IMG/VR virus record: IMGVR_UViG_3300035034_001947
Coordinates: 1-26,407 of that record
From: a virus
Reading direction: 5' to 3' (one strand)
DNA length: 26,407 nucleotides
In this document: in pieces, positions 343 through 26,407 of the stretch
Layout: each line of letters opens with the position of its first letter
Position numbering within the stretch: the stretch's first letter is position 1
Notes under the pieces: model-generated
What the model saw: the letters and a program-made list of their open reading frames with translations, nothing else
Databases searched by the model: none
What the model was told of the DNA's origin: nothing
Program-made: the position numbers and the translations under genes

Positions 343-921
343 TTATTCTCCTTTTGTATTTTTTGATAAGAAATCATTGAAGTTTAAAAAGTTACCTTCC
401 ATATCTTCTACACGTTCAGTATTTTCAGATATTTCTTCTTCTTTATCTTCTTCAATAATTACTTCTTTATCTATTTTTATTTCTTCTTTCTCTTGTGTTT
501 TTTCTTCAACTTTTTCTTCTTCAATCGACTCATTAACTAGTTCTTCTTCCTCAACAGATGATAGACTAACCACGCTTATTTTTGGAGCTACCACTGCTTC
601 TTCTTGTTCTTCGTAATTACTTTCAACTACTTTGATTTCAGTTTTAGAAATAGTTTCAAAATCTTCTTCCCAAAGTTTACTGTATTGCTCATTAGATACG
701 ATTACCTCGTAATACACTTTACCTTTTTCACCTTGGATTAAGCCTTCTAACATGGGTATAACAAAATTACATTCCTTGTTTTCAATCTTCCCTTTTACCA
801 TGTAATTCTTATCCTCAGTTTCGATGATCAATCTAGGTTTAACCTCAGATGCATCAACGCCTGTGATATCAACTTTAAACTTAAGTTTCTTGTTATTATG
901 GTTATTATATAAATTTATCAT
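343..921 (-). CDS. Acidic protein with N-terminal beta-rich domain
   Basis: A 192-aa protein in two parts. Residues about 10-95 are a beta-rich domain (KLKFKVDITGVDASEVKPRLIIE ... PMLEGL ... GKVYYEVIVSNEQYSKLWEEDFE) of a type I recall in T4-like phages of marine bacteria: a 'phage-strand' domain ending in a W-E-x-x-F motif. Residues about 105-180 are very Glu-rich and probably disordered, ending in a hydrophobic/polar tail (GNFLNFNDFLSKN). No enzymatic motif is visible. Acidic low-complexity proteins next to virion genes in T4-like phages can be head-core components (T4 gp67 is strongly acidic), but that is only analogy. The gene leads a short minus-strand unit with the two genes downstream and is separated from the genes above it by the hairpin at 982-1011. 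Confidence 0.7.
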   Translation of the reverse strand: MINLYNNHNNKKLKFKVDITGVDASEVKPRLIIETEDKNYMVKGKIENKECNFVIPMLEGLIQGEKGKVYYEVIVSNEQYSKLWEEDFETISKTEIKVVESNYEEQEEAVVAPKISVVSLSSVEEEELVNESIEEEKVEEKTQEKEEIKIDKEVIIEEDKEEEISENTERVEDMEGNFLNFNDFLSKNTKGE

Positions 922-981
922 ATATGGTTATCATTTTATACAGTATATATAAATATTATATTCTCTTTTTTTACCAAAAAC

Positions 982-1011
982 AAAAAAAAGGATAGTTTCC
1001 TATCCTTTTTT
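982..1011. terminator. Bidirectional Rho-independent terminator
   Basis: An A-run, then stem GGATAG (990-995), loop TTTC, stem CTATCC (1000-1005), then a T-run. The A and T runs extend the stem and make it work on either strand. The stop codon of the 1000-1374 gene lies inside the stem, so the hairpin ends that minus-strand unit and separates it from the acidic-protein gene. Confidence 0.8.
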
Positions 1012-1374
1012 ATTTTCCTTTAACATTTCGTTAGTTTTCTCGACTGTTATTATATTCTTTAAACCACTGACTGACCAATTGTGCTTTTTCTCCACTTTAG
1101 TTAAATTGTTCCTGAAGGGGAATCGATGTCTACATAATTTATCATCTGCATACCAAACCACATGTAAATATCTCAAAAAAGAAGATATTGTAATTAAGTT
1201 ATGAATAATAATCTTTTTTTTATTGGGATCGATTGTTATATCTTCTGTTCCAATATTTTCATATTTTATACCAAGCTGAGTATATATCTTTTCGTCTTTA
1301 TATCTATTATCAACTCTATTTAACCTTTTGGTAATATCAGGTCTATAACTATCTCCTTGTATTTGCATAGTCAT
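1000..1374 (-). CDS. Unknown protein (124 aa)
   Basis: I do not recognise this protein. It is 124 residues, basic, with a mixed alpha/beta pattern and a central stretch of aromatic and basic residues (LRYLHVVWYADDKLCRHRFPF, about residues 67-87). It begins MTMQIQGD; a second Met at codon 3 is an equally possible start. It starts five bases after the stop of the 1380-1754 gene and its own stop lies inside the terminator hairpin, so the two 124-aa genes form a short operon transcribed away from the giant plus-strand gene. Position beside baseplate-type genes suggests, but does not show, a virion assembly role. Confidence 0.65.
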   Translation of the reverse strand: MTMQIQGDSYRPDITKRLNRVDNRYKDEKIYTQLGIKYENIGTEDITIDPNKKKIIIHNLITISSFLRYLHVVWYADDKLCRHRFPFRNNLTKVEKKHNWSVSGLKNIITVEKTNEMLKENKKG

Positions 1375-1379
1375 AATAT

Positions 1380-1754
1380 CTATTTATCATTTTTTATTTC
1401 TTCTTCTATTTCATTTTTAATTTGTTCTAATCGCTCTTCAGCTTTTAACTTTTTTAGTATATCCTTTATGTTTTTGTTAATATGTGAATTCTTATTACTT
1501 AAAGTAAAGTATCCCACTTTACTTAATCCATTTACTTTTATACTATAAAGTTCATATGTCCTATCTTCTATATCTCTTTCACATATATCAATAACTATCT
1601 CTATGTTATCCTTCTCTTCAAGTAGTAAACAACCAAGAAAAAACTTTTCACCTGCTATCTTTTCTTTACCTGAAAAGTATTTTTTTTCTTCTATTTTATC
1701 AATTATATGTTGTGTCATCTCATTTTTAAATAGACTTTCTGCTTTTTTTCTCAT
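1380..1754 (-). CDS. Unknown charged protein (124 aa)
   Basis: I do not recognise this protein. It is 124 residues with a basic N-terminal helix (MRKKAESLFKNEMTQHIIDKIEEKKYF), a central beta section (about 45-85) and a highly charged C-terminal helix likely to form a coiled coil (KDILKKLKAEERLEQIKNEIEEEIKNDK). No catalytic motif is seen. It is the first gene of a two-gene minus-strand operon that diverges from the 2199-aa gene; the AT-rich motif at 1780-1794 may drive it. It could be a small baseplate or tail accessory protein, but this rests on position only. Confidence 0.65.
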   Translation of the reverse strand: MRKKAESLFKNEMTQHIIDKIEEKKYFSGKEKIAGEKFFLGCLLLEEKDNIEIVIDICERDIEDRTYELYSIKVNGLSKVGYFTLSNKNSHINKNIKDILKKLKAEERLEQIKNEIEEEIKNDK

Positions 1755-1859
1755 ATTTGAATGTTATTATTTCTGTGAATATTATATATTAAAATAGTCA
1801 TTTTGTTTACTTAACGATATAGACATATTTTATATATAGATAAAATTATCTTATAGAAG
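1755..1859. promoter_or_regulatory. Divergent promoter region with two copies of the AT-rich late motif
   Basis: This 105-base gap separates a minus-strand operon from the giant plus-strand gene. Read on the minus strand it holds TTTTAATATATAATA (1780-1794); read on the plus strand it holds TTTTATATATAG (1828-1839), about 20 bases before the TTG start. Both resemble the motif found before several other late genes in this window. Assignment as promoters is inference from recurrence and position. Confidence 0.45.
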
Positions 1860-4800
1860 TTGTCTACTATTAAAATTAATACATGTGATCAAAATTGGTT
1901 CAATAGAGATTATGTCTTTTACAACAAAAAAGGCAATCCTATTAACATATTATTCGACGAAGAACTAGGTTATTACAAAGGTAAATTATACTTTGAAGAA
2001 AATAGTTCAGACACATTCAAGAATCTAGAAATAAGTACATTCGAAAGAATAAGAGGATTTGAGTATCAGCAATATAATTCTGATACTAAGACTGATGAAT
2101 TATCCACAGAAAAGTTCCAACTTTTCAATACTAATGGTATGTCAATAATAGGCAACACTAGTAGTATAGGTGTTACTAAAGTAGAGGCAGTTAATGATAG
2201 GAAAGACTTCTTTTCAAAGTGGATATACGGTCAAGCAATTAATACCATTTTTAGAAAAGGCGAGGAAATTAAATTCAGTAGAGATATATTTGGTATCAAT
2301 AGTAAAGAAACATATACAGTAATTAGTACTAAAACCAACGCTGTGATGATTATAACAGGGACTAATAACAGAGAGTTCATAAATCAAAGTGGTGGTGTTA
2401 TTAATGATCCGAATCAGTATACGAATGTTACAGCTAATGGCGTTAATGCTATTAAAATATATGATTATATAGATAGTGATTATTCTAATAATTTCCCGAA
2501 TTGGAGTGAACCAAATTTTTACAACTTAATATACAGTGGTCAGAAATTAAACTTAGTTAACTTAGAAAATAATGACGATACTATCGTTACTATCAATTCT
2601 AAAACATTAGGCGATAATTATTATACAGACTTTAAATTAATGATGGATGATTTTGATAATAACCTTAAAATCAGAGTCACTAATAAAACAAATAATATAC
2701 TTCTATATAATGGTAATATAAACATTGTGGCAACGGGTAGTTATATCGGGTTATCTTCGAGTGTCAACACTTTAATTAAACCTAATTCTAAATTAACTAT
2801 ACCTAATTCAAATAATAATGTAGGTACTATAACAGTAGATAGCACACAGATATCGACATTCAATAGAATAAATCAGTATTACTTCAATGGTGGTTTAACA
2901 CCATCTGACGCAAGTAAAGTACTTTTCAATAACCAAATATATTCTTGTGTTACTTCTTATACACAATCAGCTACTAGTAGCATAACACCTGAGGATAATG
3001 ATTTTTGGGAAGAAACTAAATATTTACCAATAGTTGAAAGTATAAACGATGAAACTATTAATGGTACACTATATTTAGAAACTAATTCAGTTGATTTGTC
3101 TTATACATATGATAATAATATTAACGCAATATCGAATATTAATAACGCATTTACTATACATAGTGATAGTATAAACCAATTAGGATTATACTCTGATATA
3201 GATCCACTTGGAGAGTTTGTTAGATTAAGGAGTCTATACCCAACTAACTATGTAGATGTTAAATTCTTCGTAGATAAAGTAGATAGCTTTAGTGGAAGTA
3301 TAACAGATGGGACTAATTTCTCACCAACAGGATATACATTTTCATATGATCCACACCCTGAAACAAATGTATCAGTTACTGTAAATGGAACTAATGTAAT
3401 TACTACAGAAACATTAACTTCACCAACAGGTTATGTTTTCTTCTCAGATGATGCGGCATCGACTGCTACTAAATTTAATGAATTAACAAATGATTCGGGA
3501 TTATATTGGCAAGAGATAAACGCTAACTTTGGATTAACCGCTACGGATATAGTTAATGTTAATTATACTACTGAGGTTTCTAGTAAAGAGAGAACAATTG
3601 AAAGAATAATAGAAATTGAAGAAACATTAAACAACGAAGATAGAGATGACTACGCTGAGAGAAACGAAGAAAGAATAGTATTCAATGATATAGATGATTT
3701 CGGAATATCGATAAGAATCAATAATCAAGTATATGTGATAGAAAGCACTATTATAACAAGAGGTAATGGATCGGAAGATACGGAAGAATCAATTGATATT
3801 ACATTAAAAGCATTTGTAGAAAAATGGAAATTAGAATTAGATAAAAGAGGAATATATGTAGACTCTGAATACTTCGGTAATAATAATGTTAATGTATTAC
3901 ATAATTCTCTTTATTTTAGAACAGCATATCCTAATGTATTAATGAATATTAATAGGATCGATGTAGGTGCTAATACTGACTATTCTATATTAGATAAATA
4001 TATTATCTTCTATCAACTTGGTGGAGATAATACACAACTAAGTATTAATATCAATAATATAAATTATATCACAGGGTTTGATACTGATGTAGAAACTACT
4101 TTAGGAAATTGGATTATACAACACACAGAAGTATTAAATGATAATGGAATATACGTAGACAGGGAATTCAATAATTTAATAATCAATAAGAAAACAAACT
4201 TTGTTATCGATATTAATATTAACGTAGGTAGATTCTTCTATGAAGGAGAACAAGTATTTGAAATAATAAATTATTCTAAGGGATATGAAGGTCTTATTAT
4301 AAGTTCTAATAAGGTTGTACAGAATAATAATAATATTTCTTTCGAGGACGAATGTTTCTCAACAGGACAGATCGTGAGTATAAACAATACAGATTGGACA
4401 TTAGTTAATCAAGAATATAATATAATTCAATTAGATCCTGATAGAATGGTATTTTCTTACCAAGGAGCTTTTTGGGGAACTAGTAATAATAGTACACAAA
4501 ACGCATTTTTTAATTTAGCATTTGGAGAAGACTTTGAAATAGGTGATACTATTCTATACATTGATAGTGGTAGTTTCTCTACTGCGTCTGTAACAAAGGT
4601 TGCTAAGAATTTCTACCAAGCTGCTGATGGAAACCAAGTCATTACTATAGAAAGAGAGAATGCTTTTTATTATGATGAAAGCGCAATTAGTTTAACAGCT
4701 TCTTTTAATCCTGATGATATTAAGTACCTTACTTTAAATTCTAATTTAGTTGATATCGACTACTTAAACTCTACGTTTAAGAATATAGCATTGACCGATC

Positions 4801-7800: not shown

Positions 7801-8459
7801 GATCATGTTTAGTCGGAACACCTGATAGTAGAAATGGTGTAGATGATAATTTATATAACGATCTACTTGATTTATTAGGTAACGAACCCGACACTCCTAA
7901 CTACTTACGAATAGAAGAAGATATGATAGCAAATAATTTTGACGTATTAGATATAATTAGATCCAATTACCCAAATAGATGGTGTGATTTATTAGATAGA
8001 GATGAATCATTATTGACTGATATATCTATTGACCTACTCAATTTACCCGAAACACAATATGAAGGAACTAAACCCGCAAATAGTATCGAAGCTAGGACAA
8101 TGATATTAAACCTAAGAAAAGATTATAATAAGACTAAAGATCTTTATAAAGTTAAAGAGAGAGAAATTTCGCCTCAGGAAAATATATTATTAGAAAACAC
8201 TGATTTTATATTGTGGGATGATGTTACAAAATGGGCAGAAATAGATCTAGAAATGGTACAGAGTTTTAAAGAATATAGAAGTGGTGAAAATATGTTCTTA
8301 CCATATAACTTTACTTTAGATAGTAGTATAGATCCTTATGTAGTAGTAGAGATAAGAGCCGAAAATGGATATGGTCAGAACAGAACTGTGAAAAGGTCTT
8401 ATGAGATAAGATTTGATGCAGACGATAGTGCTATATTAGAAACAGTGCCTACTGTATAA
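1860..8459 (+). CDS. Giant baseplate/tail protein with embedded beta-propeller (gp7-like candidate)
   Basis: A 2199-aa protein. The start is TTG (MSTIKINTCDQNW): an in-frame TAG lies two codons upstream, so no ATG further up is possible. Regions seen: a carbohydrate-binding-like module around 344-385 (NNQIYSC ... PEDNDFWEE); divergent repeats at about 421-475, 616-703 and 727-790; a YVTN/NHL-type beta-propeller at about 1000-1310, with blades such as YVLSDNFVYVIDP, MYIFGRQN, SMYVANDGELNKIN and HIYIATQNQEIKVF; a P2 gpI-like helical segment at about 1680-1820 (EKRKELLTVKND ... AINYFGYNDLILYEYFQ); and CBM5/12-like W...Y..GD.V.y.gk.Y units at about 1894-1976. T4 gp7, the baseplate wedge, is my best structural guess because it is the counterpart of P2 gpI, but this protein is twice as long. 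The propeller and CBM-like parts suggest surface-exposed decoration. It stands alone on the plus strand among minus-strand virion genes. Confidence 0.55.
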   Translation: MSTIKINTCDQNWFNRDYVFYNKKGNPINILFDEELGYYKGKLYFEENSSDTFKNLEISTFERIRGFEYQQYNSDTKTDELSTEKFQLFNTNGMSIIGNTSSIGVTKVEAVNDRKDFFSKWIYGQAINTIFRKGEEIKFSRDIFGINSKETYTVISTKTNAVMIITGTNNREFINQSGGVINDPNQYTNVTANGVNAIKIYDYIDSDYSNNFPNWSEPNFYNLIYSGQKLNLVNLENNDDTIVTINSKTLGDNYYTDFKLMMDDFDNNLKIRVTNKTNNILLYNGNINIVATGSYIGLSSSVNTLIKPNSKLTIPNSNNNVGTITVDSTQISTFNRINQYYFNGGLTPSDASKVLFNNQIYSCVTSYTQSATSSITPEDNDFWEETKYLPIVESINDETINGTLYLETNSVDLSYTYDNNINAISNINNAFTIHSDSINQLGLYSDIDPLGEFVRLRSLYPTNYVDVKFFVDKVDSFSGSITDGTNFSPTGYTFSYDPHPETNVSVTVNGTNVITTETLTSPTGYVFFSDDAASTATKFNELTNDSGLYWQEINANFGLTATDIVNVNYTTEVSSKERTIERIIEIEETLNNEDRDDYAERNEERIVFNDIDDFGISIRINNQVYVIESTIITRGNGSEDTEESIDITLKAFVEKWKLELDKRGIYVDSEYFGNNNVNVLHNSLYFRTAYPNVLMNINRIDVGANTDYSILDKYIIFYQLGGDNTQLSININNINYITGFDTDVETTLGNWIIQHTEVLNDNGIYVDREFNNLIINKKTNFVIDININVGRFFYEGEQVFEIINYSKGYEGLIISSNKVVQNNNNISFEDECFSTGQIVSINNTDWTLVNQEYNIIQLDPDRMVFSYQGAFWGTSNNSTQNAFFNLAFGEDFEIGDTILYIDSGSFSTASVTKVAKNFYQAADGNQVITIERENAFYYDESAISLTASFNPDDIKYLTLNSNLVDIDYLNSTFKNIALTDQVNLISSTFRVEDTISSIEAPIMQSMNPFNNLLYVLSDNFVYVIDPYLNQIKSTVSNLGIGWDMEVDYITGETYISFTDSDRIMIIDPVDFSFISFDFQANYNWNKMTYNRDEEAMYIFGRQNLDIGITSDKILYKVNTDTKVVFGDFLIDGITASNIGVGSTGSTPSYLGLERESGELHYNPYNGSMYVANDGELNKINSDSTFTSFGISTNNYYSITLDNFNKYFWINNEEGKLVSISEIDIIADNLDITDHGFIFTSPNDSHIYIATQNQEIKVFSTYVNQVFFTLNVDFNVDKININKSTNDIYGINLNNNQILSIDVDFIYELKAFSNIFNLSSQASASTPFDTNGSETYGSLSEDNDTSLDDYIKLKTREFIRRPRKNYMTDGAPQATWEYRWENTEDEILKELFMYDVTGDFLESTGSYSYTGTKPLPNPIIKRKPNRDLNLVDEGYAQQTIFNNLTYTLDYNDSEENISFTPVSIQTFIGFNSKTEGVINNILNIYEDEDIKFTFPSYDSFTNSEFSVTLPDQEFTFTHDSENNRGIITLSSNSTDTFNQIVDLDNLTGTSTNFNENQFLNIRVLDTTNDVGYVSSNDNINVKIIQLFERELIVEYLDDNTFTNETTAVEYPSEGTTTYLDLTLEVIKKKVAEFDIYAQTEIEDERFKNELTNIGKIINPEDIYIFKDYDINEGGIDWTFMNEKRKELLTVKNDIYNYLGAYRSIINAINYFGYNDLILYEYFQNINVDSAEFLKLFKVEVEDIFNNDIDGWTDNYKFYQFPNPNYEETKLFNLTYRITDFEGNKLITYSIEEAIIKLEGLKYWLEKNIIPLTHEIKDITGELSFLSIDQNFDTSSSIKVFETNDTMSEIDFNIEESYVMPIQNGSTVYTTIIDFLTASNDSPDYFTLGVKTYKTYDKWEAFNSYNTGDKVDYFGKIYENVLEDEGNVVLNFNNTPLEFQEVDTWDVNTLYEDSNVVKYKRRFYKYSLRTTTVNYLPWVGASGSCLVGTPDSRNGVDDNLYNDLLDLLGNEPDTPNYLRIEEDMIANNFDVLDIIRSNYPNRWCDLLDRDESLLTDISIDLLNLPETQYEGTKPANSIEARTMILNLRKDYNKTKDLYKVKEREISPQENILLENTDFILWDDVTKWAEIDLEMVQSFKEYRSGENMFLPYNFTLDSSIDPYVVVEIRAENGYGQNRTVKRSYEIRFDADDSAILETVPTV
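3120..3283 (+). repeat. Divergent internal protein repeat, copy 1
   Basis: Residues about 421-475 of the giant tail protein (ISNINNAFTIHSDSINQLGLYSD ... RLRSLYPTNYVDVKFFVDKV). It shares with the copies at 3706 and 4039 a helix ending in 'GIY/GLY', an acidic turn, and a short beta hairpin. The match is weak and by eye. Confidence 0.35.
3706..3970 (+). repeat. Divergent internal protein repeat, copy 2
   Basis: Residues about 616-703 of the giant tail protein: ISIRINNQVYVI, a helix ending DKRGIYVDSEY, then NSLYFRTAYPNVLMNINRIDVG. It aligns by eye with copy 3 along its whole length (INNxxY ... GIYVDxEF ... I.IN..VG). Confidence 0.45.
4039..4230 (+). repeat. Divergent internal protein repeat, copy 3
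   Basis: Residues about 727-790 of the giant tail protein: LSININNINYITGF, a helix ending NDNGIYVDREF, then FVIDININVG. It directly follows copy 2, so these two form a tandem pair. Confidence 0.45.
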
Positions 8460-8460
8460 C

Positions 8461-8503
8461 AAAAAAAAGGGGAACAAGATATAAATCTCATTCCCCTTCT
8501 TAA
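8461..8503. terminator. Convergent bidirectional terminator
   Basis: A hairpin with outer stem GGGGAA (8469-8474) and TTCCCC (8491-8496) and an inner AGAT/ATCT pairing across an ATAA loop. The eight A's at 8461-8468 become a T-run when read on the minus strand, so it should stop transcripts of the 8518-9252 gene well; the plus-strand side has only a weak T-run. It lies between the convergent ends of the giant gene and the minus-strand genes. Confidence 0.75.
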
Positions 8504-8517
8504 CCAAATAAATAAAA

Positions 8518-9252
8518 TTACTTAGACTCGGTTGTTTCTGCAACACTAGGTTCAACATCTGCTTCCCCCCAAATAAGATGATACATCTTATCATTTTTGT
8601 TGATATTAACATCCTTTTCTAAGGTGTTTACCCAAAACTGAATAGCTTTAGCTAAGTCTTCGTACTTATTTTTATAATAACCAAAGATATTACTTGATAA
8701 TGCAATTCTTTTGATTACTTCTGCGAAAGTATATGTTCTTTTAGTTAAACCTTTGAAAGTTTGCTTAGAAAGAAGGTGGTATAAATACTGAAGATCAACT
8801 GCATTCATCTTGAATCCAATAGCTTGATCAGCACTATCATAATTACCATTTTCTTTCATGTTATCTAACATGTCTTTTAATTCAATAGCATAAAAGATTG
8901 TGTCAACATCATATTCCAATTTGCTATTAAGCATCTCATTGACAAACTTATATTCTTCTTGGTGTAGGATAAGATCAAAACTAATTGAATTTAATCTACC
9001 GCCATTTTTGCCACTAACCTCATTCCATAGAATTTGAAGTTGTTTATATACAGCTTCTTTTTCACCATCGCTGTAAGTTTTAGAATGTTTATTTCTCATA
9101 AAGTCCATGATTTCATCATACTTAGAATCTAAATAAGTTTCGTCTTCTTGTGATAAAACACGAATCAAAGTTTCATTGTATGCTTTGAAGTTCATATCGG
9201 GCTTTTCCGCTATAACTATGTTTTTTAATTGTTCTTGTTGGGTATTTTCCAT
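8518..9252 (-). CDS. Unknown helical protein (244 aa)
   Basis: I do not recognise this protein. It is 244 residues, almost entirely predicted helical and soluble, without signal peptide or membrane segment. Features include a helix-rich core (DFMRNKHSKTYSDGEKEAVYKQLQILWNEV, about 49-79), a segment DIFYAIELKDMLDNMK at about 117-132 and a short acidic tail rich in Glu, Thr and Ser. The start MENTQQEQ follows an A-rich leader; an AT-rich motif lies further up. It is the last gene of the minus-strand series running down from the tape-measure-like protein and ends at the hairpin at 8461-8503. Position suggests a virion or assembly role; no function can be named. Confidence 0.7.
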   Translation of the reverse strand: MENTQQEQLKNIVIAEKPDMNFKAYNETLIRVLSQEDETYLDSKYDEIMDFMRNKHSKTYSDGEKEAVYKQLQILWNEVSGKNGGRLNSISFDLILHQEEYKFVNEMLNSKLEYDVDTIFYAIELKDMLDNMKENGNYDSADQAIGFKMNAVDLQYLYHLLSKQTFKGLTKRTYTFAEVIKRIALSSNIFGYYKNKYEDLAKAIQFWVNTLEKDVNINKNDKMYHLIWGEADVEPSVAETTESK

Positions 9253-15611: not shown

Positions 15612-15624
15612 CTATATATTAAAA
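15612..15624 (-). promoter_or_regulatory. AT-rich late motif before tail tube gene
   Basis: On the minus strand this reads TTTTAATATATAG, 30 bases before the tail tube ATG. It also encodes the last residues (NFNI) and stop of the endonuclease relic, so the relic's frame ends in the tail tube gene's signal. Confidence 0.45.
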
Positions 15625-15893
15625 TTAATACTTTCCATTAACTCTATAACCTCTTTATTATAAGGGATTCTTATTAATTTTATATTGTTTTCTTGACAAT
15701 ATTTTGTTTTTATATTGTCTCTTTTTTTAATATCCTTAAGTGTTTTTATTCCTCCAAAAAAATCTACAGGTTTATAATGTTGGATACCATCATATTCTAT
15801 ACACATATCATAATTAGTTTTATCATATTTATATAAACCTTTGTGTACACTATCCACCTTAGATATAAATTTTTCATTGGTTAATTTTCTCAT
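15612..15893 (-). pseudogene. Internally deleted homing-endonuclease relic
   Basis: A 93-aa frame. Its N-terminus (TNEKFISKVDSVHKGLYKYD, then KTNYD) is the start of a well-known phage endonuclease layout, 'F..k...iH...YdYskvnY', and its C-terminus (MCIEYDGIQHYKPVDFFGG, IKTLKDIKKRDNIKTKYC, NNIKLIRIPY) is the end of the nuclease domain. In full-length members well over 50 residues, including the 'D.YlP' strand with a catalytic aspartate, lie between these two parts; here they are joined directly after NYD. The frame is open but very likely inactive. A short functional version is less likely. It faces the plus-strand cassette and ends in the tail tube promoter motif. Confidence 0.7.
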
Positions 15894-17936: not shown

Positions 17937-19661
17937 CTATATGTGATAAACCCACTTATCTTGACCACTATTCCATATTCTATAAGCACCCACTTGTTCA
18001 TACATAATTTCCCTTTCTGATAAATTGGGATCGTATCCCTTTTCTACTAGTTTATGTTTAGCAAAATTATATCTATGCTTTCTCTCTTTGTTTAATACCC
18101 AATGGTAATTTATTTTACTTCTGTGACTATATTCAAACCCTAATATCTTATAAAGATTACCATTAGAATATGACCTATCACTAAAAGAATATATTTCTTT
18201 AGGAGAATGTTCTTTTATAAAGTGTTTAAATAATTTAGAAGCACCACCTACTATATTGTAATTAGTCTTATTACAAAACCTAGCTAACTCATAAACATTA
18301 TCTCTACTTTTATGTCCCATCATATTCCTTGGTTTAGAAAAGGTCATTAGACTAACTAATTTTTCGTTATAATACAAACCATACGAGTAAGTAGAATTAG
18401 AATAACCTTGTATATGATTATTATCTAAGAATTCTCTGTATTCCTTAGAGCCAACTTTTTTAATTTTACATTTTCTACCAAATACTTTATTAGGAGTATT
18501 ATTGAATTTATTCTTTAACATAGATTTAACTATATCATCCTTCAATAGCCAATCGTCTTCCCAAATATGTAACATCTGTATGCCTTCTTTCTCAGCTTCA
18601 TTAGTTTTATTGAAGTGATAATACTTGTCCTTATTGATCTCACTATGCCAAAAAAGACCATTAAATTCAATAGCTAATTTGATTTCAGGTAGATAAATAT
18701 CTACTTCGTGTGGCGGTATAATAGTTCTATTATTAGTTATGATTTCACCTTCATAACTTTCTTCGATGAAATTAAGTAGTTGTAATTCTAATCCACTTAC
18801 ACTTCTATTATTTTGAGGATGACATTCAGTACATATCACTGTATCGTTTTTAACTGTCCTATGATATAAAAGATCATTATTTATGACAAATTCATGACCC
18901 TTATTACATAACATCCTACTACTTGTTCTGTTATGTAATTCACTTTCTTTGAATATTCCAAGTAATTTATAATCACTTGGTATCCTCTTTTTAATTTTAG
19001 TTTCTTCCTTTTGAAGTTTTTTCTTATTAGTAGTTTTAATTCCTTTATCGTGTATTTCTTTAACCATCCAATGGTGTTCCACACCATATTTCTTTAAGCT
19101 AGTTTCTTTGAAAGAAGCCTTAAACTGATCTATATTTTTTTTAAAACTCTTAATTCTTTTTTCTGTTAAATCTTTATGTCTGTTAGGGTTTTCTACACCC
19201 CAATTACCCATTAAAGTTTTCTTAGATTTCTCTTGAATTTCTTTATTTGACATAGGAGAATTACCACCATATAATTTATTATTAGTATTGATCATTTTTT
19301 GTTTGATTACTTCTGATTCGGCAGGTGTTTTTGTGCCAAACTTTTCTAAAGACTTTTGTTCTTTTCTTTTGATCATATTAGGATCTGAACCAATACATTT
19401 ATTAGAACAATACTCTCTATACCCTAAAGTAGTATTTCTGAATTTTACCTTGTCATTACAATTAGGATTCTTACAATTAGGAGAATGGTTAATATCATTA
19501 ACAGTTAGATATACTTTCTCTTTAAATGAGATATCTTCTTTAATATTACCTATAATAATATCATAATCCGCAGCATAGTTCTTTGATACATATTTAGAAC
19601 TAGACATCTTACCTGACTTATTATTGAAATTGAACTCTTTTATGAATTCCTTTGATAGCAT
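17937..19661 (-). CDS. Vsr-like homing endonuclease with C-terminal GNAT-like domain
   Basis: A 574-aa protein. In order: a zinc finger (Cys 63, 68, 85, 89; 'NPNCNDKVKF ... GYREYCSNKC'); 'FGxxxPxxxxxxxxK' DNA-binding repeats at about 100-215 (KFGTKTP, NWGVENP, KYGVEHHW); a second finger with LCNKGHEF and CTECHP (about 250-285); a Vsr/EDxHD-type nuclease core at about 288-375 with SGLELQL, EVDIYLPEIKLAIEFNGLFW, HSE and HIWEDDW; and a C-terminal domain resembling GNAT folds (about 390-574, ELARFCNK ... GGASKLFKHFIKEHSPKEIYSF) ending YRIWNSGQDKWVYHI. Free-standing phage nucleases of this build are homing endonucleases, and Vsr-like ones are known to accompany split-intein 'fractured' genes. It sits between gp18 and gp19, downstream of a sheath terminator. 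Confidence 0.8.
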   Translation of the reverse strand: MLSKEFIKEFNFNNKSGKMSSSKYVSKNYAADYDIIIGNIKEDISFKEKVYLTVNDINHSPNCKNPNCNDKVKFRNTTLGYREYCSNKCIGSDPNMIKRKEQKSLEKFGTKTPAESEVIKQKMINTNNKLYGGNSPMSNKEIQEKSKKTLMGNWGVENPNRHKDLTEKRIKSFKKNIDQFKASFKETSLKKYGVEHHWMVKEIHDKGIKTTNKKKLQKEETKIKKRIPSDYKLLGIFKESELHNRTSSRMLCNKGHEFVINNDLLYHRTVKNDTVICTECHPQNNRSVSGLELQLLNFIEESYEGEIITNNRTIIPPHEVDIYLPEIKLAIEFNGLFWHSEINKDKYYHFNKTNEAEKEGIQMLHIWEDDWLLKDDIVKSMLKNKFNNTPNKVFGRKCKIKKVGSKEYREFLDNNHIQGYSNSTYSYGLYYNEKLVSLMTFSKPRNMMGHKSRDNVYELARFCNKTNYNIVGGASKLFKHFIKEHSPKEIYSFSDRSYSNGNLYKILGFEYSHRSKINYHWVLNKERKHRYNFAKHKLVEKGYDPNLSEREIMYEQVGAYRIWNSGQDKWVYHI

Positions 19662-19767: not shown

Positions 19768-22700
19768 TTAACTAGTTTGAAAACCTGATGAATCAATTGC
19801 ACCCGTATTAAGTATCGTGATGTTATTAACAATTACACCCATACCTTTAATAATCTCAACATATGTGTCTAATACACCTATTTGATTATCGATAATCTCC
19901 TGTGTGTTGTTTTCACTATCAATCTTATTAAAGAAGTTAAATAGTCCGTTTCTATTTACATAGTCTTGACAGATAGTATCTGCTCTTAATTTGATCTCTG
20001 ATCTAATCTCAGGTGTGTTATATTTCCATTGGAATTGTAGTAACATATCAGAAAGATCTCTTTCTAATTCAATTAATACTTCTCTTGAATGGATAAAGCT
20101 TAATGCACTATTTACTAGTGATTCTGCTGTATTCTCAGTTTCAATTACATTACCTCTGTTTCTCTTAGAAACAATTGGGTTAACTGACATTTGGTTTAAC
20201 TCGATGATATCTTCATTTGTTAAATTATATTCTAATCCTGATATACCTGTAATTTGTCCATCAGTAATACCCGCAGCAATAGTCCATGGTGTCACACTTG
20301 TTAGAGCGTTATTATGCTTTCTAAGGAAAGTGTTAGCCACAAATGATGATGGTGGTAATGAAATTGGTCTACCGTTATCTCCTATTGTTACATAAGGAGT
20401 AAAGTAAGCCACACATGTTTGACCATCGCCTTCTGCTAATGAGAAGTTAAATCCCGCAACTGCTTCAGGGTTACCTCCTAATCTGATATAATCAAATCTA
20501 ATAGCACCTCTACTATCAGTGAAACTCGGTGCTGCAGCATTTCTAAATTGTTTCATACTTGGCATGTTTAATATACCGAAGCAATCTAAACGCTTACCAC
20601 AAATATCAGCTAATTGTTGCTTAGAATTACTTATAAGACCTAATCCATAAGAATCGATCAAGTATCTAAAATCAATGATATTTTTATCTGTTAATGCGTT
20701 ATATAAAGATGTTCCTTTACCTACTACATTTAATATATCTGTTAATCTACTATCAGTATTATCAGGTAAAGAAGCTGTTCTTAATCTGAAACCAAATAAA
20801 TTAATACCTTTATATGTTGATACATAATCATCGATCTGTGTAAATCTGTATGTTTGTTTATCACCATTGAAGTCATATAATCTAATAGCTGAATCACATG
20901 TAATTTCTACTAATGATACATCCTCAGAATATGTTCTTTTTCTGATAACTCTTGTTACTTGTCTTGGAACTTCTCCTAATTCAGTTGCCTCAGGTGCTAC
21001 TGCTTGTAAGAAATCACCTATTCTAATTTCAGCATATCTAGTAGCATCTACTAATATTTTATTAGTTATAGGAGTGTATCCTACAGGTTCTTCTATTTCT
21101 ACTGTTTGTCTAAAATTAGATGATTGTGAAATAATATCAATCGTTTTATTGAATGTACTCGCACCAGGGTTTAGACTAGCATCAGTAAAATCAATTGTCA
21201 ATATATCATTCACTAAGTAAAATCTTAGGAATTTTTGTCCTGTTCCGCTTGTTAACCAAATCTTAGTTGGATTAACTATTACTTCATCAGTAATATTAGA
21301 TGATAATAAATATCCAAAATACGCACCTGTCGCTCCCGTTAATCCCGTAGCAATTGGAGTTGGATCTGAAACGATCAATTCTCCTGTGTTACTTGTAGAT
21401 TCAGGTAAGATAATAGTATCATTCGTTTGGAAATTTAATTCTTTATCACTTATTAAGTAATCATCACCATTGATATCTAATAATCTAACATAGTTTAACT
21501 CAGATGCTTCGGCTGTATTATCTAATCCATCAATTAAGTTTTCGTAGAAATAATCTCCTGTGTTTATATTACCATCTATATAATCTTGATATAAATCACT
21601 GTATTCAGCTACTATACCATATGTTGCTCCAATCCAATTATTTGTTGTAATAGCACCTTCTGATGATAATACAAATTCATTATCAATTATATGTAATACA
21701 AGTCCGTTAGTTTCTAAGATAGAAGAATTTAAAAATCCTGTATCAAATCCACTAATTGTTATTGTTTTATTTAATGTAGTGCTAGTTACTAATGTAACGT
21801 CTAGATCAGCAATAGCTCTTTTCCATGGATTTCCATTAGAACCACTTCCTTCATCTACTAATATTGTTGCTCTATTTCCTGTTGAACTACTTAAGATACC
21901 TGACATATTATTAAATGTCTTCCATCTTCTATATCCAACATAATCAGTTACATCAGGAACTCCTGTTGTGTTTAAGAATTCATATGTAATTTGATTTTGA
22001 TTAGCGTTAACTGTTACTGTTACATCAGTTGAATTATCAAAGTAGATAAATCCACTTTCACCTACTGATACAGGTGTATAGTCAACAGATTGGAAATATT
22101 TAACTCTATCTGCATCTAATGCTACTATAATATCAACGTAACCTAATACTATACCATTTGTGAGGTCATTGTTATTAGGGTTAGTTTTAATACCACCGTC
22201 AGTATCAATAAAGAATACTTTTTGGAAACTTTGTGTTGTTCCAGGACTTGTACTATTTGTCGTAAAATCATCAGGAACAAAATCAAAATCAGTAGCAGCT
22301 ATTAATAAAGCTTGTCCACCAATGATAGCATATGGTTGTTCTGCTCCAATTGTTACAGAAGTTGTACCAAAATCTACGCTATATGTACCATATCCTACAT
22401 CCGATGGGTATGTACCATCAATCTCAGATGCAGAAGGTCCGATAAGACCGATCACAAAATCCTCTGCGTATGCTGCCTTTCTTTCTTGACCCGCTTCTTG
22501 ATAATAAGAACCAAATGTTAATTGGTGTGTATTACCTAATGAATCTAATTGTTTTTCAACATATTCGTTTTTTTCTGTAACATCATCATTATATGATAAC
22601 ATTTCAATTCTTTCAATAGTGTTATCAGCAATAATATTATTACCTACTAAATCTAATAAACCATTTCTATATGTAGTTTCTACTGCGTCGATATTATATG

Positions 22701-23577
22701 CCATATAAATACCTGTTTCATCAGTTCTTAAATTAATTCTATCTTCAATAAAGATGTTAGTGTTACTAGCATCTGTGAAGTAAGGGATTAATGATAAGTT
22801 TCTGAATACCCCTAACGTATTAATACTTTGATTATTCACTAAATTGAATAATTGATCTTTAACTAATCCTTGGTTATTGAAGTATTGACTCCAAATTGGA
22901 TCTACTGATAATTCAGTGTAATTAGTCCAATCTCCTGATAACATTACAACATCTACTAAGTAGTCTGATGCGAAATCATTTTTATCCAAATATAAAGGTA
23001 CTTTATCAACTGATCCATACCATTCTAATAATGTTTTATCAAATCCATATGAGTTTTGTGACTTTACTATAAAGATAGTAACTTGTCTATTATTTAAGTT
23101 AGTGAAGTGTAATACTCTATTTTCGTCACCTGCGTTATCGTCTGTTACAGATAAAAATGCTTCTCTATCTTTTTCCCAAAAAGCAGAAGTATTGAAAAAT
23201 CTACTATATGGTGCTTCTCTTATTGCATCATTTACATAACCTGTTGCTGTTGATAATGATTTATACTCGATTTGATCTAAATCGTCGTCTAAGTCTACTA
23301 TGTTCATAGCAACTACGGGTGTGTTTTGTAAAACTCTTGATATAGTTCTGTGAAAAAAAGAACCCTTTGATTCTAAAGATCTATCAATTGTTCCAAAAAT
23401 TCTTTCTAATTGGATTTGTGAGTTAATTACAACAGGTGTATTGAGAGGTCCTTTCTTACTAGAACCAATAACTAATGACTGAATACCTGTAACAATAGGT
23501 GTTTCTATTGCTGAGTTATTAAATTCTTCTATGAAAATTCCTGGTCTTTGGTATTTACCTATATCTACTGTTGGCAT
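19768..23577 (-). CDS. 18: Tail sheath protein (T4 gp18-like), unusually long
   Basis: A 1269-aa protein that forms the contractile sheath. The N-terminus (PTVDIGKYQRPGIFIEEFNN, ETPIVTGIQSLVIGSSKKGP, then NTPVVINSQIQLERIFG) is the standard sheath opening, ending in a 'P..v.s...f...fG' motif. The C-terminal 400 residues hold the conserved sheath core and polymerisation domain: IDDYVSTYKGINLFGFRLR, LIDSYGLGLISNSKQ, FDYIRLGGNPEAVAGFNFSL, GQTCVAYFTPYV, PPSSFVANTFLRKHN, then WTIAAGITDGQITG and EVLIELERDLSDMLLQFQWK. T4 gp18 has 659 residues; the extra length lies between about residues 130 and 860, a beta-rich, Asn/Thr/Gly-rich region likely to form surface domains. Order terminase-sheath matches T4. 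The start follows an A-rich leader. Confidence 0.88.
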   Translation of the reverse strand: MPTVDIGKYQRPGIFIEEFNNSAIETPIVTGIQSLVIGSSKKGPLNTPVVINSQIQLERIFGTIDRSLESKGSFFHRTISRVLQNTPVVAMNIVDLDDDLDQIEYKSLSTATGYVNDAIREAPYSRFFNTSAFWEKDREAFLSVTDDNAGDENRVLHFTNLNNRQVTIFIVKSQNSYGFDKTLLEWYGSVDKVPLYLDKNDFASDYLVDVVMLSGDWTNYTELSVDPIWSQYFNNQGLVKDQLFNLVNNQSINTLGVFRNLSLIPYFTDASNTNIFIEDRINLRTDETGIYMAYNIDAVETTYRNGLLDLVGNNIIADNTIERIEMLSYNDDVTEKNEYVEKQLDSLGNTHQLTFGSYYQEAGQERKAAYAEDFVIGLIGPSASEIDGTYPSDVGYGTYSVDFGTTSVTIGAEQPYAIIGGQALLIAATDFDFVPDDFTTNSTSPGTTQSFQKVFFIDTDGGIKTNPNNNDLTNGIVLGYVDIIVALDADRVKYFQSVDYTPVSVGESGFIYFDNSTDVTVTVNANQNQITYEFLNTTGVPDVTDYVGYRRWKTFNNMSGILSSSTGNRATILVDEGSGSNGNPWKRAIADLDVTLVTSTTLNKTITISGFDTGFLNSSILETNGLVLHIIDNEFVLSSEGAITTNNWIGATYGIVAEYSDLYQDYIDGNINTGDYFYENLIDGLDNTAEASELNYVRLLDINGDDYLISDKELNFQTNDTIILPESTSNTGELIVSDPTPIATGLTGATGAYFGYLLSSNITDEVIVNPTKIWLTSGTGQKFLRFYLVNDILTIDFTDASLNPGASTFNKTIDIISQSSNFRQTVEIEEPVGYTPITNKILVDATRYAEIRIGDFLQAVAPEATELGEVPRQVTRVIRKRTYSEDVSLVEITCDSAIRLYDFNGDKQTYRFTQIDDYVSTYKGINLFGFRLRTASLPDNTDSRLTDILNVVGKGTSLYNALTDKNIIDFRYLIDSYGLGLISNSKQQLADICGKRLDCFGILNMPSMKQFRNAAAPSFTDSRGAIRFDYIRLGGNPEAVAGFNFSLAEGDGQTCVAYFTPYVTIGDNGRPISLPPSSFVANTFLRKHNNALTSVTPWTIAAGITDGQITGISGLEYNLTNEDIIELNQMSVNPIVSKRNRGNVIETENTAESLVNSALSFIHSREVLIELERDLSDMLLQFQWKYNTPEIRSEIKLRADTICQDYVNRNGLFNFFNKIDSENNTQEIIDNQIGVLDTYVEIIKGMGVIVNNITILNTGAIDSSGFQTS

Positions 23578-23720: not shown

Positions 23721-24077
23721 ATGGATAAAATGAAAGATAGAATAGTAGGGTACTTGGAATTACATACCAATAAAAACGATGTATTTATTGAGATAGTAAA
23801 ACTCACTGAGGAAATATTCGAATCTAACACAATAGGTGAATTAAATGATTTTAATAATGGTCTAAATGAATTAAGAACCGAAAGAACTGTTAGATTACAT
23901 CAAAAAAACAATCAAATATTAGTAGGACTAGAAGCTAATGTTGAGAAGAACCTTAATATAATTAAAAAAGACGCAATCAAGGAAATGGAAACCGAAATGG
24001 AAAATTGTGTTAAAGTTGAAGATTACGAAGGTGCTGCCGAATGGAAAAAAATGATAGATGAAAGCTTAAATAAGTGA
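23721..24077 (+). CDS. Small helical protein with UVR-like C-terminal motif
   Basis: A 118-aa, wholly helical, charged protein. The C-terminus (CVKVEDYEGAAEWKKMIDES) follows the UVR motif pattern '..EDYE.AA..KK.I..' that UvrB and UvrC, and ClpC/McsA-type proteins, use for protein-protein contact; the rest (LNELRTERTVRLHQKNNQIL, about 48-67) is coiled-coil-like. So a small adaptor-like protein is plausible; its partner is unknown. A plus-strand gene between two minus-strand virion genes, it has its own TAACTTTG element, and its 3' end overlaps the terminase 3' end by 12 bases. It could instead be a simple coiled-coil phage protein whose UVR likeness is chance. Confidence 0.65.
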   Translation: MDKMKDRIVGYLELHTNKNDVFIEIVKLTEEIFESNTIGELNDFNNGLNELRTERTVRLHQKNNQILVGLEANVEKNLNIIKKDAIKEMETEMENCVKVEDYEGAAEWKKMIDESLNK

Positions 24078-26303
24078 TTTAGGGTCTATACCCCCTCTAA
24101 AATTTCTAGTATTATAATTTGTGTAATTTTTCTTACCCTTAAAAAAAGATCCATAATCTGTTCCAATAGACTTCTCCTTTTCTAATACCTCAGCTATTAA
24201 TTTATTTATAATATTATTCGGTTCATTATCCATGAAATCTAATACAGTATCTTTAAATGATCTGTTTCTCCAACCTTGTGTTAGATTCACAATAGTCATA
24301 GCTAAGTCATCATTAGAACCATCCCCTCTATAAATCACATTCCCTGCTGCTGTTTCATGTGAAATAAAGGTAGATATCTCTTTGATAGTATTCTCTTCAC
24401 TAACTAAAATAGTCTGATCTTCTAACATTAACTGATAATCTTTAACAAACTTATTTTTATTAAGTCCTACTTTCAGACCTACCTTTCGATCAACAGCATC
24501 TAATCGATGTTTAAATTTTAACATAACATAAGTACTATAATCATTCTCTCTGTTGAATACGTTCTTAATAGCATTCAATAATGTCTTTCCGTCATTGTTA
24601 TATTCAACAACTACTTTCATTTTATCAGGATCAAAAAATTCGAATATCAATACATAAAGTATCTCAGCAAGTTGCTCTACACTAATTATATTAGATCTAA
24701 ATAATCCAAATTGAGTTAATTGAAAAAAGTCTTCTCTTACTGAATAGTGTTCCTTTTGTTCTTCTATTATTTCTTGTGATTTATATCCTAATCTGAACAT
24801 ATTAATTACACTATAATCTTGACCTAATCCCTCAGATACATCGACGGAGATCATACCATACATATTCTTTCTCATATCTTCATCCCAATCTTTAGCGAAT
24901 TTTAATGAGCTATAATCCCATTTTAATTTATCGAATTCTTCTAATCCATTAATATGTCTATACTTTTGTTTACTATTAGTAATTCTTTCAATGGTTTCTT
25001 CTTTTAATACACTTCTAGACCCTGATGCGAAACGAAGATCATATTCTTGATTAAAGTTATCCTCACCACCAATATTCTTAATTGCATCTAATTTCCAAGT
25101 AGAAATACCATCACAGAATGTAGAACAAAATATTTTTTCACCATCTCTATTGACCACAGAAGTATTTTTAAGATCATCATATTTTAATCTTTCTGTGTTC
25201 TGTACATGTATCCATGTTTTCCTATTAATACTTTGTGTTTTCTTTGTTACAAGAGGAATATTATTAGAATTGACATCATCGTTAGGGTTATATATTTCTT
25301 TCAATTGTTCAAAGACCGAATCTAAATCTAAATTCTGTTGTAATAATAAATGTTGGTTTATCTTGAAATAAGTTACATTACGACCAGGTACTTGATGCCA
25401 ATAAACCCTCAATGGGGTAAACTCATTCTTCAATGGATCTGATATTTCTCTCTCAGCATCTGTTAATAGTTTATGAAATAGGTTATATCCATCAGGTGTC
25501 GATGTAATAATCATTTTAGAATTTTCGATAGATGCTAAAGTAGGGAAAATAGATTTATAGAATTTATCTGCTATATTATTATTAATATGGGCAAACTCAT
25601 CAACATATACTAAGTCACCCGCATTACCAATAGAAGCATTTTTCGTCATTGCGAATGCTTTAGCTCTACATCCGTTCTCAAATTTTATCCTATTTACATT
25701 CCATGTATCAATACCTTGTTTTAAAAACAATGGAATGTAACTATAAAGTGTCTTAATTTTATCAAGTACTTCTTGTGATGTTTCTAATTTATTCGCAGCA
25801 ATAAGTACGTTTTTATTATTATTAAACATCATATAATGTAATATATAAATAGCCGCACATACTGTGTTATGACTTAATATACCATTTGTATAATACCTAT
25901 GGTCTTCATGATCAACTGTAATATCAACCATAGAAGTCTTTCTTTTCAATTTCTTTATTATCTTAACTTTAGATATACCTGATTCAGTAGATATTTTATC
26001 ACCTACCTTTAAGTGTTTCACAAACATTTCACTTAAATATTGATCAAATATTCTATGATTATCAGCACAAGTCAAATTCATCCCATTTTCTAACTCTAAA
26101 TAATAATGAGTATATGGTTGTGTGATCATCATTTTACTAATATCAATATAACCCGAATCAGATTTAACTTTATACCCATAAACATCATGTTCAGATAATA
26201 TTTTATAATCATTATCATCTTCGTCTAATATATGGTTTCTATATTCTATCCTTTCTATAAGCTCTATACATTTATAGATTAATTTAATTAAGAATTTTTT
26301 CAT
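24066..26303 (-). CDS. terL: Terminase large subunit, C-terminal half of a split-intein gene
   Basis: A 745-aa frame: residues 1-146 are intein, 147-745 terminase. The terminase part packages DNA into the head (ATPase motor) and cuts it (nuclease). ATPase: it begins TVCAAIYILHYMMFNN right after the Walker A lysine position (T4: SRQLGK/TTVVAIFLAHF); Walker B is DLVYVDEFAH (hydrophobic, then Asp-Glu); coupling motif is MIITSTPDG. Nuclease acidic residues: SVDVSEGLGQDYSV (T4 D401 region), VVVEYNNDGKTLLNAI (T4 E458 region) and GSNDDLAMTIVNL (T4 D542 region). So all nuclease residues are present, but the Walker A start and the N-terminal domain are missing. The ATG at 26303 is preceded by an in-frame TAA two codons upstream, so this is not a mis-set start. 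The partner gene must lie outside the window. Confidence 0.88.
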   Translation of the reverse strand: MKKFLIKLIYKCIELIERIEYRNHILDEDDNDYKILSEHDVYGYKVKSDSGYIDISKMMITQPYTHYYLELENGMNLTCADNHRIFDQYLSEMFVKHLKVGDKISTESGISKVKIIKKLKRKTSMVDITVDHEDHRYYTNGILSHNTVCAAIYILHYMMFNNNKNVLIAANKLETSQEVLDKIKTLYSYIPLFLKQGIDTWNVNRIKFENGCRAKAFAMTKNASIGNAGDLVYVDEFAHINNNIADKFYKSIFPTLASIENSKMIITSTPDGYNLFHKLLTDAEREISDPLKNEFTPLRVYWHQVPGRNVTYFKINQHLLLQQNLDLDSVFEQLKEIYNPNDDVNSNNIPLVTKKTQSINRKTWIHVQNTERLKYDDLKNTSVVNRDGEKIFCSTFCDGISTWKLDAIKNIGGEDNFNQEYDLRFASGSRSVLKEETIERITNSKQKYRHINGLEEFDKLKWDYSSLKFAKDWDEDMRKNMYGMISVDVSEGLGQDYSVINMFRLGYKSQEIIEEQKEHYSVREDFFQLTQFGLFRSNIISVEQLAEILYVLIFEFFDPDKMKVVVEYNNDGKTLLNAIKNVFNRENDYSTYVMLKFKHRLDAVDRKVGLKVGLNKNKFVKDYQLMLEDQTILVSEENTIKEISTFISHETAAGNVIYRGDGSNDDLAMTIVNLTQGWRNRSFKDTVLDFMDNEPNNIINKLIAEVLEKEKSIGTDYGSFFKGKKNYTNYNTRNFRGGIDPKSLI
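25866..26303 (-). other. C-terminal intein fragment (IntC), split near its N-terminus
   Basis: Residues 1-146 of the terminase frame. The end is a textbook intein C-terminus: block F/G MVDITVDHEDHRYYTNGIL then SHN, with penultimate His 145, terminal Asn 146 and Thr 147 as the +1 nucleophile. Block B is at MNLTCADNHRIF with His 83; the 'FVKHLKVGDKI' turn follows. The front part (LIYKCIELIERIE ... YKILSEHDVYGYKV) resembles the 'IKELYxLL ... ykVLs.dGf' that follows block A in whole inteins, but block A itself (a Cys or Ser start and 'GDT') is absent. So the split lies just after block A, as in the known AceL-TerL intein, whose N-part is only about 25 residues. Confidence 0.88.
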
Positions 26304-26407
26304 GAATTATATATAAAAAACTTAATTATAGCCATATAAGACTATATTAAGTACTTATAGGTCTTTTAGCCTATATTTAATTAAAATTGGTTATATTTGC
26401 TGTAATA
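26304..26407. other. AT-rich region upstream of the terminase fragment
   Basis: 104 bases without a gene. On the minus strand it carries TTTTATATATAATT just before the terminase ATG, similar to the late motif, and stops in all frames. An imperfect palindrome centred on TAAGTACTTA lies at 26340-26363. TATATTTG occurs on the plus strand at 26392-26399, without a -33 match. Confidence 0.4.

What the first reader, a model, noticed from the sequence alone, without database searches (positions are those of the whole stretch)
25866..26303. Split intein in the phage terminase large subunit
The frame opens with 146 residues of intein (block B His 83; C-terminus NGILSHN) joined to the terminase ATPase at Thr 147. 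An in-frame TAA two codons before the ATG rules out a contiguous gene, and block A is missing. This is the C-half of a split intein broken close to its N-terminus, the rare arrangement seen in AceL-TerL-type terminase inteins. Such inteins need only a very short N-fragment. Here the IntC is longer (146 residues) and starts with a basic, hydrophobic helix (MKKFLIKLIYKCIELIERIE), so this may be a distinct natural variant.
Basis: partly seen in the sequence, partly recalled or inferred. Interest (0 to 1): 0.85.

Follow-up and report, generated by a model that had tools for sequence, protein, structure and literature searches.

The report
Split intein rejoins broken packaging motor
In this huge phage the gene for the essential DNA-packaging motor is broken inside its ATP-binding site, the two pieces lie 67 kb apart, and each carries half of a self-splicing protein (intein) that should join them; relatives show every stage from unbroken gene to scattered halves.

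Summary
Window 25866-26303(-) encodes a 146-residue IntC, fused at Walker A Thr147 to a T4 gp17-type terminase large subunit (TerL), with an in-frame TAA two codons upstream. I found the missing half on a 270,756-bp contig of the same phage (99.94% identical over 12.3 kb). It encodes the TerL N-terminus ...SILMASRQIGK, then a 51-residue IntN starting at Cys1. It lies 67 kb from the C-half, and no intact terL is on that contig.

Calling it AceL-TerL-like is partly right. The nearest solved structures are VidaL and Cat, and the break lies after alpha-1 (S2), as in AceL/GOS-TerL. But IntN is 51 residues (known natural atypical ones: 15-37), and both halves carry an extra 17-19-residue helix at the break. 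Rare contiguous relatives hold both helices in one frame.

The family is large: 406 IntC relatives in IMG/VR. Of 48 distinct adjacent pairs, 37 hold a homing-endonuclease-like ORF between the halves and 11 do not. Near-identical intein-free alleles exist. Halves are dispersed in this phage, in two related contigs, and in the 735-kb phage LR756501. Synteny puts this phage's rearrangement breakpoint between the halves. Splicing itself is inferred, not shown. Verdict: a new, mobile variant of a known kind.

The parts
24066..26303 (-). terL C-half gene (745 aa): IntC + C-extein (rest of ATPase and nuclease)
26307..26309 (-). in-frame TAA stop two codons upstream of the ATG
25866..26303 (-). IntC, 146 residues
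26244..26300 (-). N-terminal amphipathic helix of IntC (residues 2-20), absent from VidaL and CatC matches
26202..26243 (-). linker (residues 21-34; family motif LDEDDISKKIL)
25866..26201 (-). HINT-fold core of IntC (residues 35-146)
26055..26057 (-). block B His83, invariant in the family
25866..25886 (-). block G NGILSHN (residues 140-146), invariant in A3
25863..25865 (-). +1 nucleophile Thr147, which is the Walker A Thr of TerL
24066..25865 (-). C-extein of TerL
23721..24077 (+). small gene downstream of terL, used as a synteny marker (homologs downstream of terL in L016, L017, L019)
19768..23577 (-). tail sheath protein, synteny marker on the C-half side
17937..19661 (-). 574-aa endonuclease-like ORF (DUF7487) of the same family as the ORF lying between terL halves in L024; not between the halves here

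Best explanation
The window holds one half of a naturally split, mobile intein that interrupts TerL at the Walker A motif (GK|T). Two separate genes encode TerL-N + IntN (51 aa) and IntC (146 aa) + TerL-C. The two intein pieces should associate, through docking of IntN beta1-beta2-alpha1 onto IntC and probably also through the two helices flanking the break. They then splice in trans: Cys1 acyl shift, transfer to Thr+1, Asn146 cyclisation, and joining of ...SRQIGK to TVCAAI..., which restores Walker A. Neither precursor holds a complete Walker A motif, so neither should package DNA alone. The element spread as a unit of IntN, endonuclease ORF and IntC by homing into intein-free terL. Loss of the endonuclease leaves a split intein, and because trans-splicing needs no linkage, genome rearrangements then separated the halves, as in this phage. 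Shown by sequence: both halves, conservation, mobility pattern, dispersal. Inferred: splicing, helix pairing, homing activity, order of the stages.
For: N-half found at G001:184877-185371(+), C-half at 115281-117518(+). IntC fold and motifs. IntN model: beta, beta, alpha-1, then helix 86-102. 48 distinct adjacent pairs: 37 with an ORF between the halves, all in three families (31, 4, 2), 11 without. Contiguous 194- and 203-aa relatives carry tail and head helix in one frame. L215 IntN ends in a remnant of the endonuclease C-terminus, score 68 against a shuffled maximum of 49. Intein-free alleles interleave with split ones: at least 15 changes on the extein tree, 10 forced by starred branches; L074 intact and L020 split have practically identical exteins. 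N- and C-extein distances correlate at 0.95, extein with IntN only 0.34. dN/dS: C-extein 0.15, IntC core 0.20, IntN core 0.29, IntN tail 0.28, IntC head 0.47. Synteny: genes upstream of intact terL in L019 lie with the N-half in G001, genes downstream lie with the C-half; L016 shares eight collinear genes upstream of the C-half with G001.
Against: No splicing assay. G001 is a fragment (270 kb), so an intact second terL elsewhere is not excluded. The specific helix-to-helix pairing is not shown by covariation: the partial Mantel correlation of tail and head is 0.13 (p 0.07), and is lost when the IntN core is controlled. Two relatives have odd junctions (LR756501 ends NLN|T, LR756500 ends SSQ|T), so not every copy need be active. 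The N-half's new position in this phage rests on one contig.
Confidence: 0.88

Rival explanations
1. The intein is decaying: the C-half is a relic and a different, intact terminase packages the DNA.
For: Some relatives have altered block G (LR756501 NLN|T, LR756500 SSQ|T). LR756501 and LR756500 encode a second TerL-like ORF with an altered Walker A.
Against: dN/dS 0.15-0.29 in exteins and intein cores; all splicing residues intact in this phage; single terL N-part and C-part hit on G001; the second TerL-like ORFs lack the Walker A GK.
Confidence: 0.06
2. Assembly or sequencing error: the halves are really one locus, or one continuous gene.
For: Metagenomic contigs; the N-half position in this phage rests on one contig.
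Against: Same 5' end of the C-half in two contigs; L016 shares eight genes upstream of the C-half; both halves have their own start codon, and adjacent relatives have frames broken by stops; LR756501, a curated 735-kb genome, and G044 are also dispersed.
Confidence: 0.03
3. The two TerL pieces work as a non-covalent complex, and the intein pieces only hold them together without splicing.
For: Helices at the break could act as a dimerisation tag; altered block G in two relatives.
Against: Cys1, block B His and SHN|T are invariant in almost all members; the intein lies between Walker A Lys and Thr, where an unspliced insert should abolish ATP binding (inference from the P-loop fold).
Confidence: 0.03

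Closest known systems
AceL-TerL, GOS-TerL and the consensus Cat intein (atypically split TerL inteins)
   Same: Same host gene type; same S2 break after alpha-1 (PMC13014065 for AceL and GOS); CatC is a profile and fold match.
   Different: IntN 51 aa (51-70 in the family) against 25, 37 and 30; extra helix on each side of the break; CatC matches only from profile position 34 on.
VidaL split intein (6vgv)
   Same: Best sequence and fold match of IntC; short-N split.
   Different: VidaL splits at S1 with a 16-aa IntN (PMC13014065); match starts at profile position 47, so no helix equivalent.
Fractured genes (Dassa et al. 2009; known here only through citing papers and memory)
   Same: Essential gene broken by a split intein with a free-standing endonuclease ORF between the halves, as in 37 of 48 adjacent relatives.
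   Different: In this phage the halves are 67 kb apart with no endonuclease between; here the intact, contiguous, endonuclease-less and dispersed stages are seen in one family.
Contiguous TerL mini-inteins of Kuttervirus (Salmonella phages LPST94, Maynard, Marshall, Mooltan)
   Same: Same GK|T insertion site, homologous IntC part (36% over 304 residues); annotated as intein in some records.
   Different: One open frame, no helix pair at the S2 site, no break.
Split DnaE intein of cyanobacteria (from general knowledge)
   Same: Two distant genes joined by trans-splicing.
   Different: Canonical split site, cellular polymerase gene, different intein group.

Membership tests
Intein (HINT protein-splicing element) | Cys/Ser/Thr at position 1 after the N-extein and Asn + Cys/Ser/Thr at the C junction | tested here: met
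   GK|C and SHN|T in this phage
Intein (HINT protein-splicing element) | HINT fold and block B/F/G motifs | tested here: met
Intein (HINT protein-splicing element) | in-frame insertion into a conserved protein, with intein-free homologs | tested here: met
   (L018, L019, L073-L094)
Intein (HINT protein-splicing element) | splicing activity | not testable with these tools
   needs expression of both halves
Atypically split TerL inteins (AceL/GOS/Cat type) | natural break near the intein N-terminus, at S2 after alpha-1, in terL | tested here: met
   IntN model of the close relative L017: beta1, beta2, alpha-1, then break helix; CatC homology
Atypically split TerL inteins (AceL/GOS/Cat type) | short IntN (15-37 aa) | tested here: not met
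   51 aa in this phage, 51-70 in 34 distinct pairs; range from PMC13014065
Fractured gene (split intein with free-standing endonuclease gene between halves) | both halves adjacent with an endonuclease ORF between | tested here: not met
   in this phage: 67 kb apart, no related endonuclease of family A on G001; met in 37 of 48 adjacent relatives
Fractured gene (split intein with free-standing endonuclease gene between halves) | endonuclease of the Vsr-like kind | tested here: inconclusive
   weak Pfam hits to MTES_1575, DUF559 and Vsr, clear hits to DUF7487; no activity test

The most novel reading that the evidence does not exclude
A helical pair inserted at the S2 site of an intein is cut in two and serves as a built-in docking device. 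It lets the halves of an essential phage motor find each other even when encoded tens of kilobases apart or on opposite strands. One phage family then preserves the whole path: intact gene, contiguous intein, endonuclease-fractured gene, endonuclease-less split, scattered gene.
Probability: 0.45. Interest if true: 0.75.

Novelty: new variant of a known kind. Interest (0 to 1): 0.64.

Why it matters
How an intact gene becomes two distant genes that depend on trans-splicing is an open question; the known fractured genes were proposed as a missing link. This family offers the stages side by side in closely related phages, in an essential gene, including a rearrangement breakpoint that falls between the halves. 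It also offers dozens of new natural split inteins with a Cys1/Thr+1 pair and a helix at the break, which may be useful for protein ligation, and it may explain why terL looks truncated or missing in some huge-phage annotations.

Tried and rejected
NCBIfam intein_Nterm found nothing in the window or in G001, although IntN is in G001: the family model misses this diverged block A, so the negative was not trusted. IntN alone in the phage collection gave only weak hits. Partial Mantel tests for helix pairing gave no clear support. The independent-pairs test of IntN type against IntC head motif agreed in 4.6 of 5 pairs but cannot reach significance (p 0.0625). Modelling the complex of both halves was not possible: two structure jobs only, own unchanged chains only. 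A scan of bacterial and archaeal genomes found one distant relative. A read-through or frameshift mechanism was rejected: halves lie 67 kb apart, and on opposite strands in G044. Three of the key papers (Dassa 2009, Bachmann 2015, Stevens 2018) are not held here.

Full report
OBSERVATION. Window 24066-26303(-) is a 745-codon frame with TAA two codons before its ATG. Residues 1-146 are an intein C-part and residue 147 begins TerL (Terminase_6N from residue 147; intein C-terminal motif).

THE MISSING HALF. The window is a 26-kb virus record. The same phage is held as a 270,756-bp contig, IMGVR_UViG_3300023049_000005 (G001), 99.94% identical over 12,339 bases. Searching it with the intact N-extein of LR745206 gave one hit, G001:184886-185218(+). 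The gene reads ...NPLSILMASRQIGK followed by CVDPLTEVKIIDKTDNNYIMPFFRLLYKSKVSKTIYDHIKYVLYSLLYKLS and a stop: the N-extein and a 51-residue IntN. The C-half is at 115281-117518(+), so 67 kb separate them. No other copy of either TerL part is on this contig, but the contig is not a complete genome.

ANATOMY. The IntC alignment of 30 members keeps His83, the acid-rich linker and NGILSHN|T. The IntN alignment of 31 members keeps SRQ.GKC. AlphaFold gives IntC residues 2-20 as a helix (pLDDT 84-88), a linker, then a beta-rich HINT fold (mean pLDDT 83, pTM 0.72). The N-half of the relative L017 gives two strands, alpha-1, then a terminal helix 86-102 in its IntN (mean pLDDT 78.5, pTM 0.45). The best structural matches of IntC are VidaL and Cat. 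In both, the sequence match starts after the helix, and cultured phages with an intein at this site also match only from about residue 33-50 on. So the helix pair is particular to this family. The head helix is amphipathic in 28 of 34 pairs at p<0.05, the tail helix in 9 of 34.

FAMILY. A scan with terminase found 349 relatives, one with IntC found 406. Among the best hits: intein-free alleles; four contiguous contigs of two kinds (194 and 203 aa) in which tail and head helix run on in one frame; and 48 distinct adjacent split pairs. In 37 of these an ORF lies between the halves: 31 of family A (zinc-finger plus nuclease-like), 4 of family B (DUF7487, on the other strand) and 2 of family C. 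The stop of many of these ORFs overlaps the ATG of the C-half by 8, 11, 25 or 28 bases. In 11 there is no such ORF. L024 and L026 are near-identical halves with and without the family B ORF. In L215 the IntN runs into a remnant of a family C C-terminus, which shows loss of the ORF.

MOBILITY. On a TerL extein tree of 53 rows, intact and split states need at least 15 changes, 10 forced by starred branches (quick method, some long branches). L074 (intact) and L020 (split) have practically identical exteins; L088 intact, L035 split and L039 split share one background with two IntN types. Extein halves evolve together (r 0.95) but IntN is much less tied to them (0.34). dN/dS is 0.15-0.29 for exteins, cores and IntN tail, and 0.47 for the IntC head.

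DISPERSAL. In L019 (intact) and L017 (fractured) the order is: upstream genes, RNA ligase, terL, small gene, and in L017 sheath. In G001 the first group stays with the N-half and the second with the C-half, so a rearrangement breakpoint lies between the halves. L016, 66% identical in TerL, has the same eight genes upstream of its C-half and no N-half within 6 kb: the state is inherited. In G044 the N-half is at 1812-2297(+) and the C-half at about 24507-26756(-), on opposite strands and in another neighbourhood. In LR756501, whose 735-kb length matches the largest phage of the huge-phage study (PMC7162821, which does not mention inteins), the halves are 12.4 kb apart.

MECHANISM AND LIMITS. 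Trans-splicing is the reading that best explains two conserved, complementary intein halves inside Walker A, but it was not assayed. The helices may dock the halves; sequence covariation does not prove it. Direction of the evolutionary series is inferred, except for endonuclease loss in L215 and the breakpoint in G001.

KNOWN OR NEW. Atypically split TerL inteins with IntN of 15-37 aa are known (PMC13014065, PMC11766414), as are fractured genes. A jumbo-phage split PolB intein with an endonuclease was reported (PMC6892783). I found no report of this TerL family or of dispersed TerL halves in the held papers, which lack most subscription journals. I file it as a new variant of a known kind.

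Noticed in passing
MF360958.1 (Salicola phage SCTP-2): 429488-429676(-), 256428-257321(+), 215993-218077(-); L136, L014, L135: A cultured phage whose TerL seems to be in three scattered pieces: a 43-aa IntN at Walker A, a middle piece with IntC and a second IntN at Walker B, and a last piece with a second IntC plus a contiguous intein.
   Followed up: partly
L016, L019, L028-L030, L033, L052: A second, contiguous intein of about 370 residues at the TerL nuclease motif (DD|C...HN|C); Pfam finds LAGLIDADG_3 in L016, which also has the split intein.
   Followed up: partly
L140 (Delftia phage PhiW-14) 1476-1949 and 1953-3755: Adjacent split TerL intein without endonuclease in a cultured phage; the N-half is not annotated.
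   Followed up: partly
L141 (Campylobacter phage CP21) 1967-5389: TerL with a contiguous intein at Walker A, a split intein with an endonuclease-like ORF between, and a further intein.
   Followed up: no
L142 (Vibrio phage vB_VmeM-32) 1075-3216: TerL frame that begins with an IntC; the N-half was not looked for.
   Followed up: no
L008 (LR756501) 649-1833; L013 (LR756500) 7931-8749: Second TerL-like ORFs whose Walker A has lost GK (SRQMGIT, SRQMGIS).
   Followed up: no
L002 and L013 intein junctions: Odd block G: NLN|T in LR756501 and SSQ|T in LR756500, so splicing may be altered or lost there.
   Followed up: no
window 15612-15893(-): 93-aa ORF that resembles by eye part of an endonuclease-like ORF next to terL in L005 (4075-4560).
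   Followed up: no
L012 (LR756504) 607-3031; L010 and L011: Other inteins in these huge phages (ribonucleotide reductase and another gene); in L012 the intein seems split by an endonuclease-like ORF.
   Followed up: no
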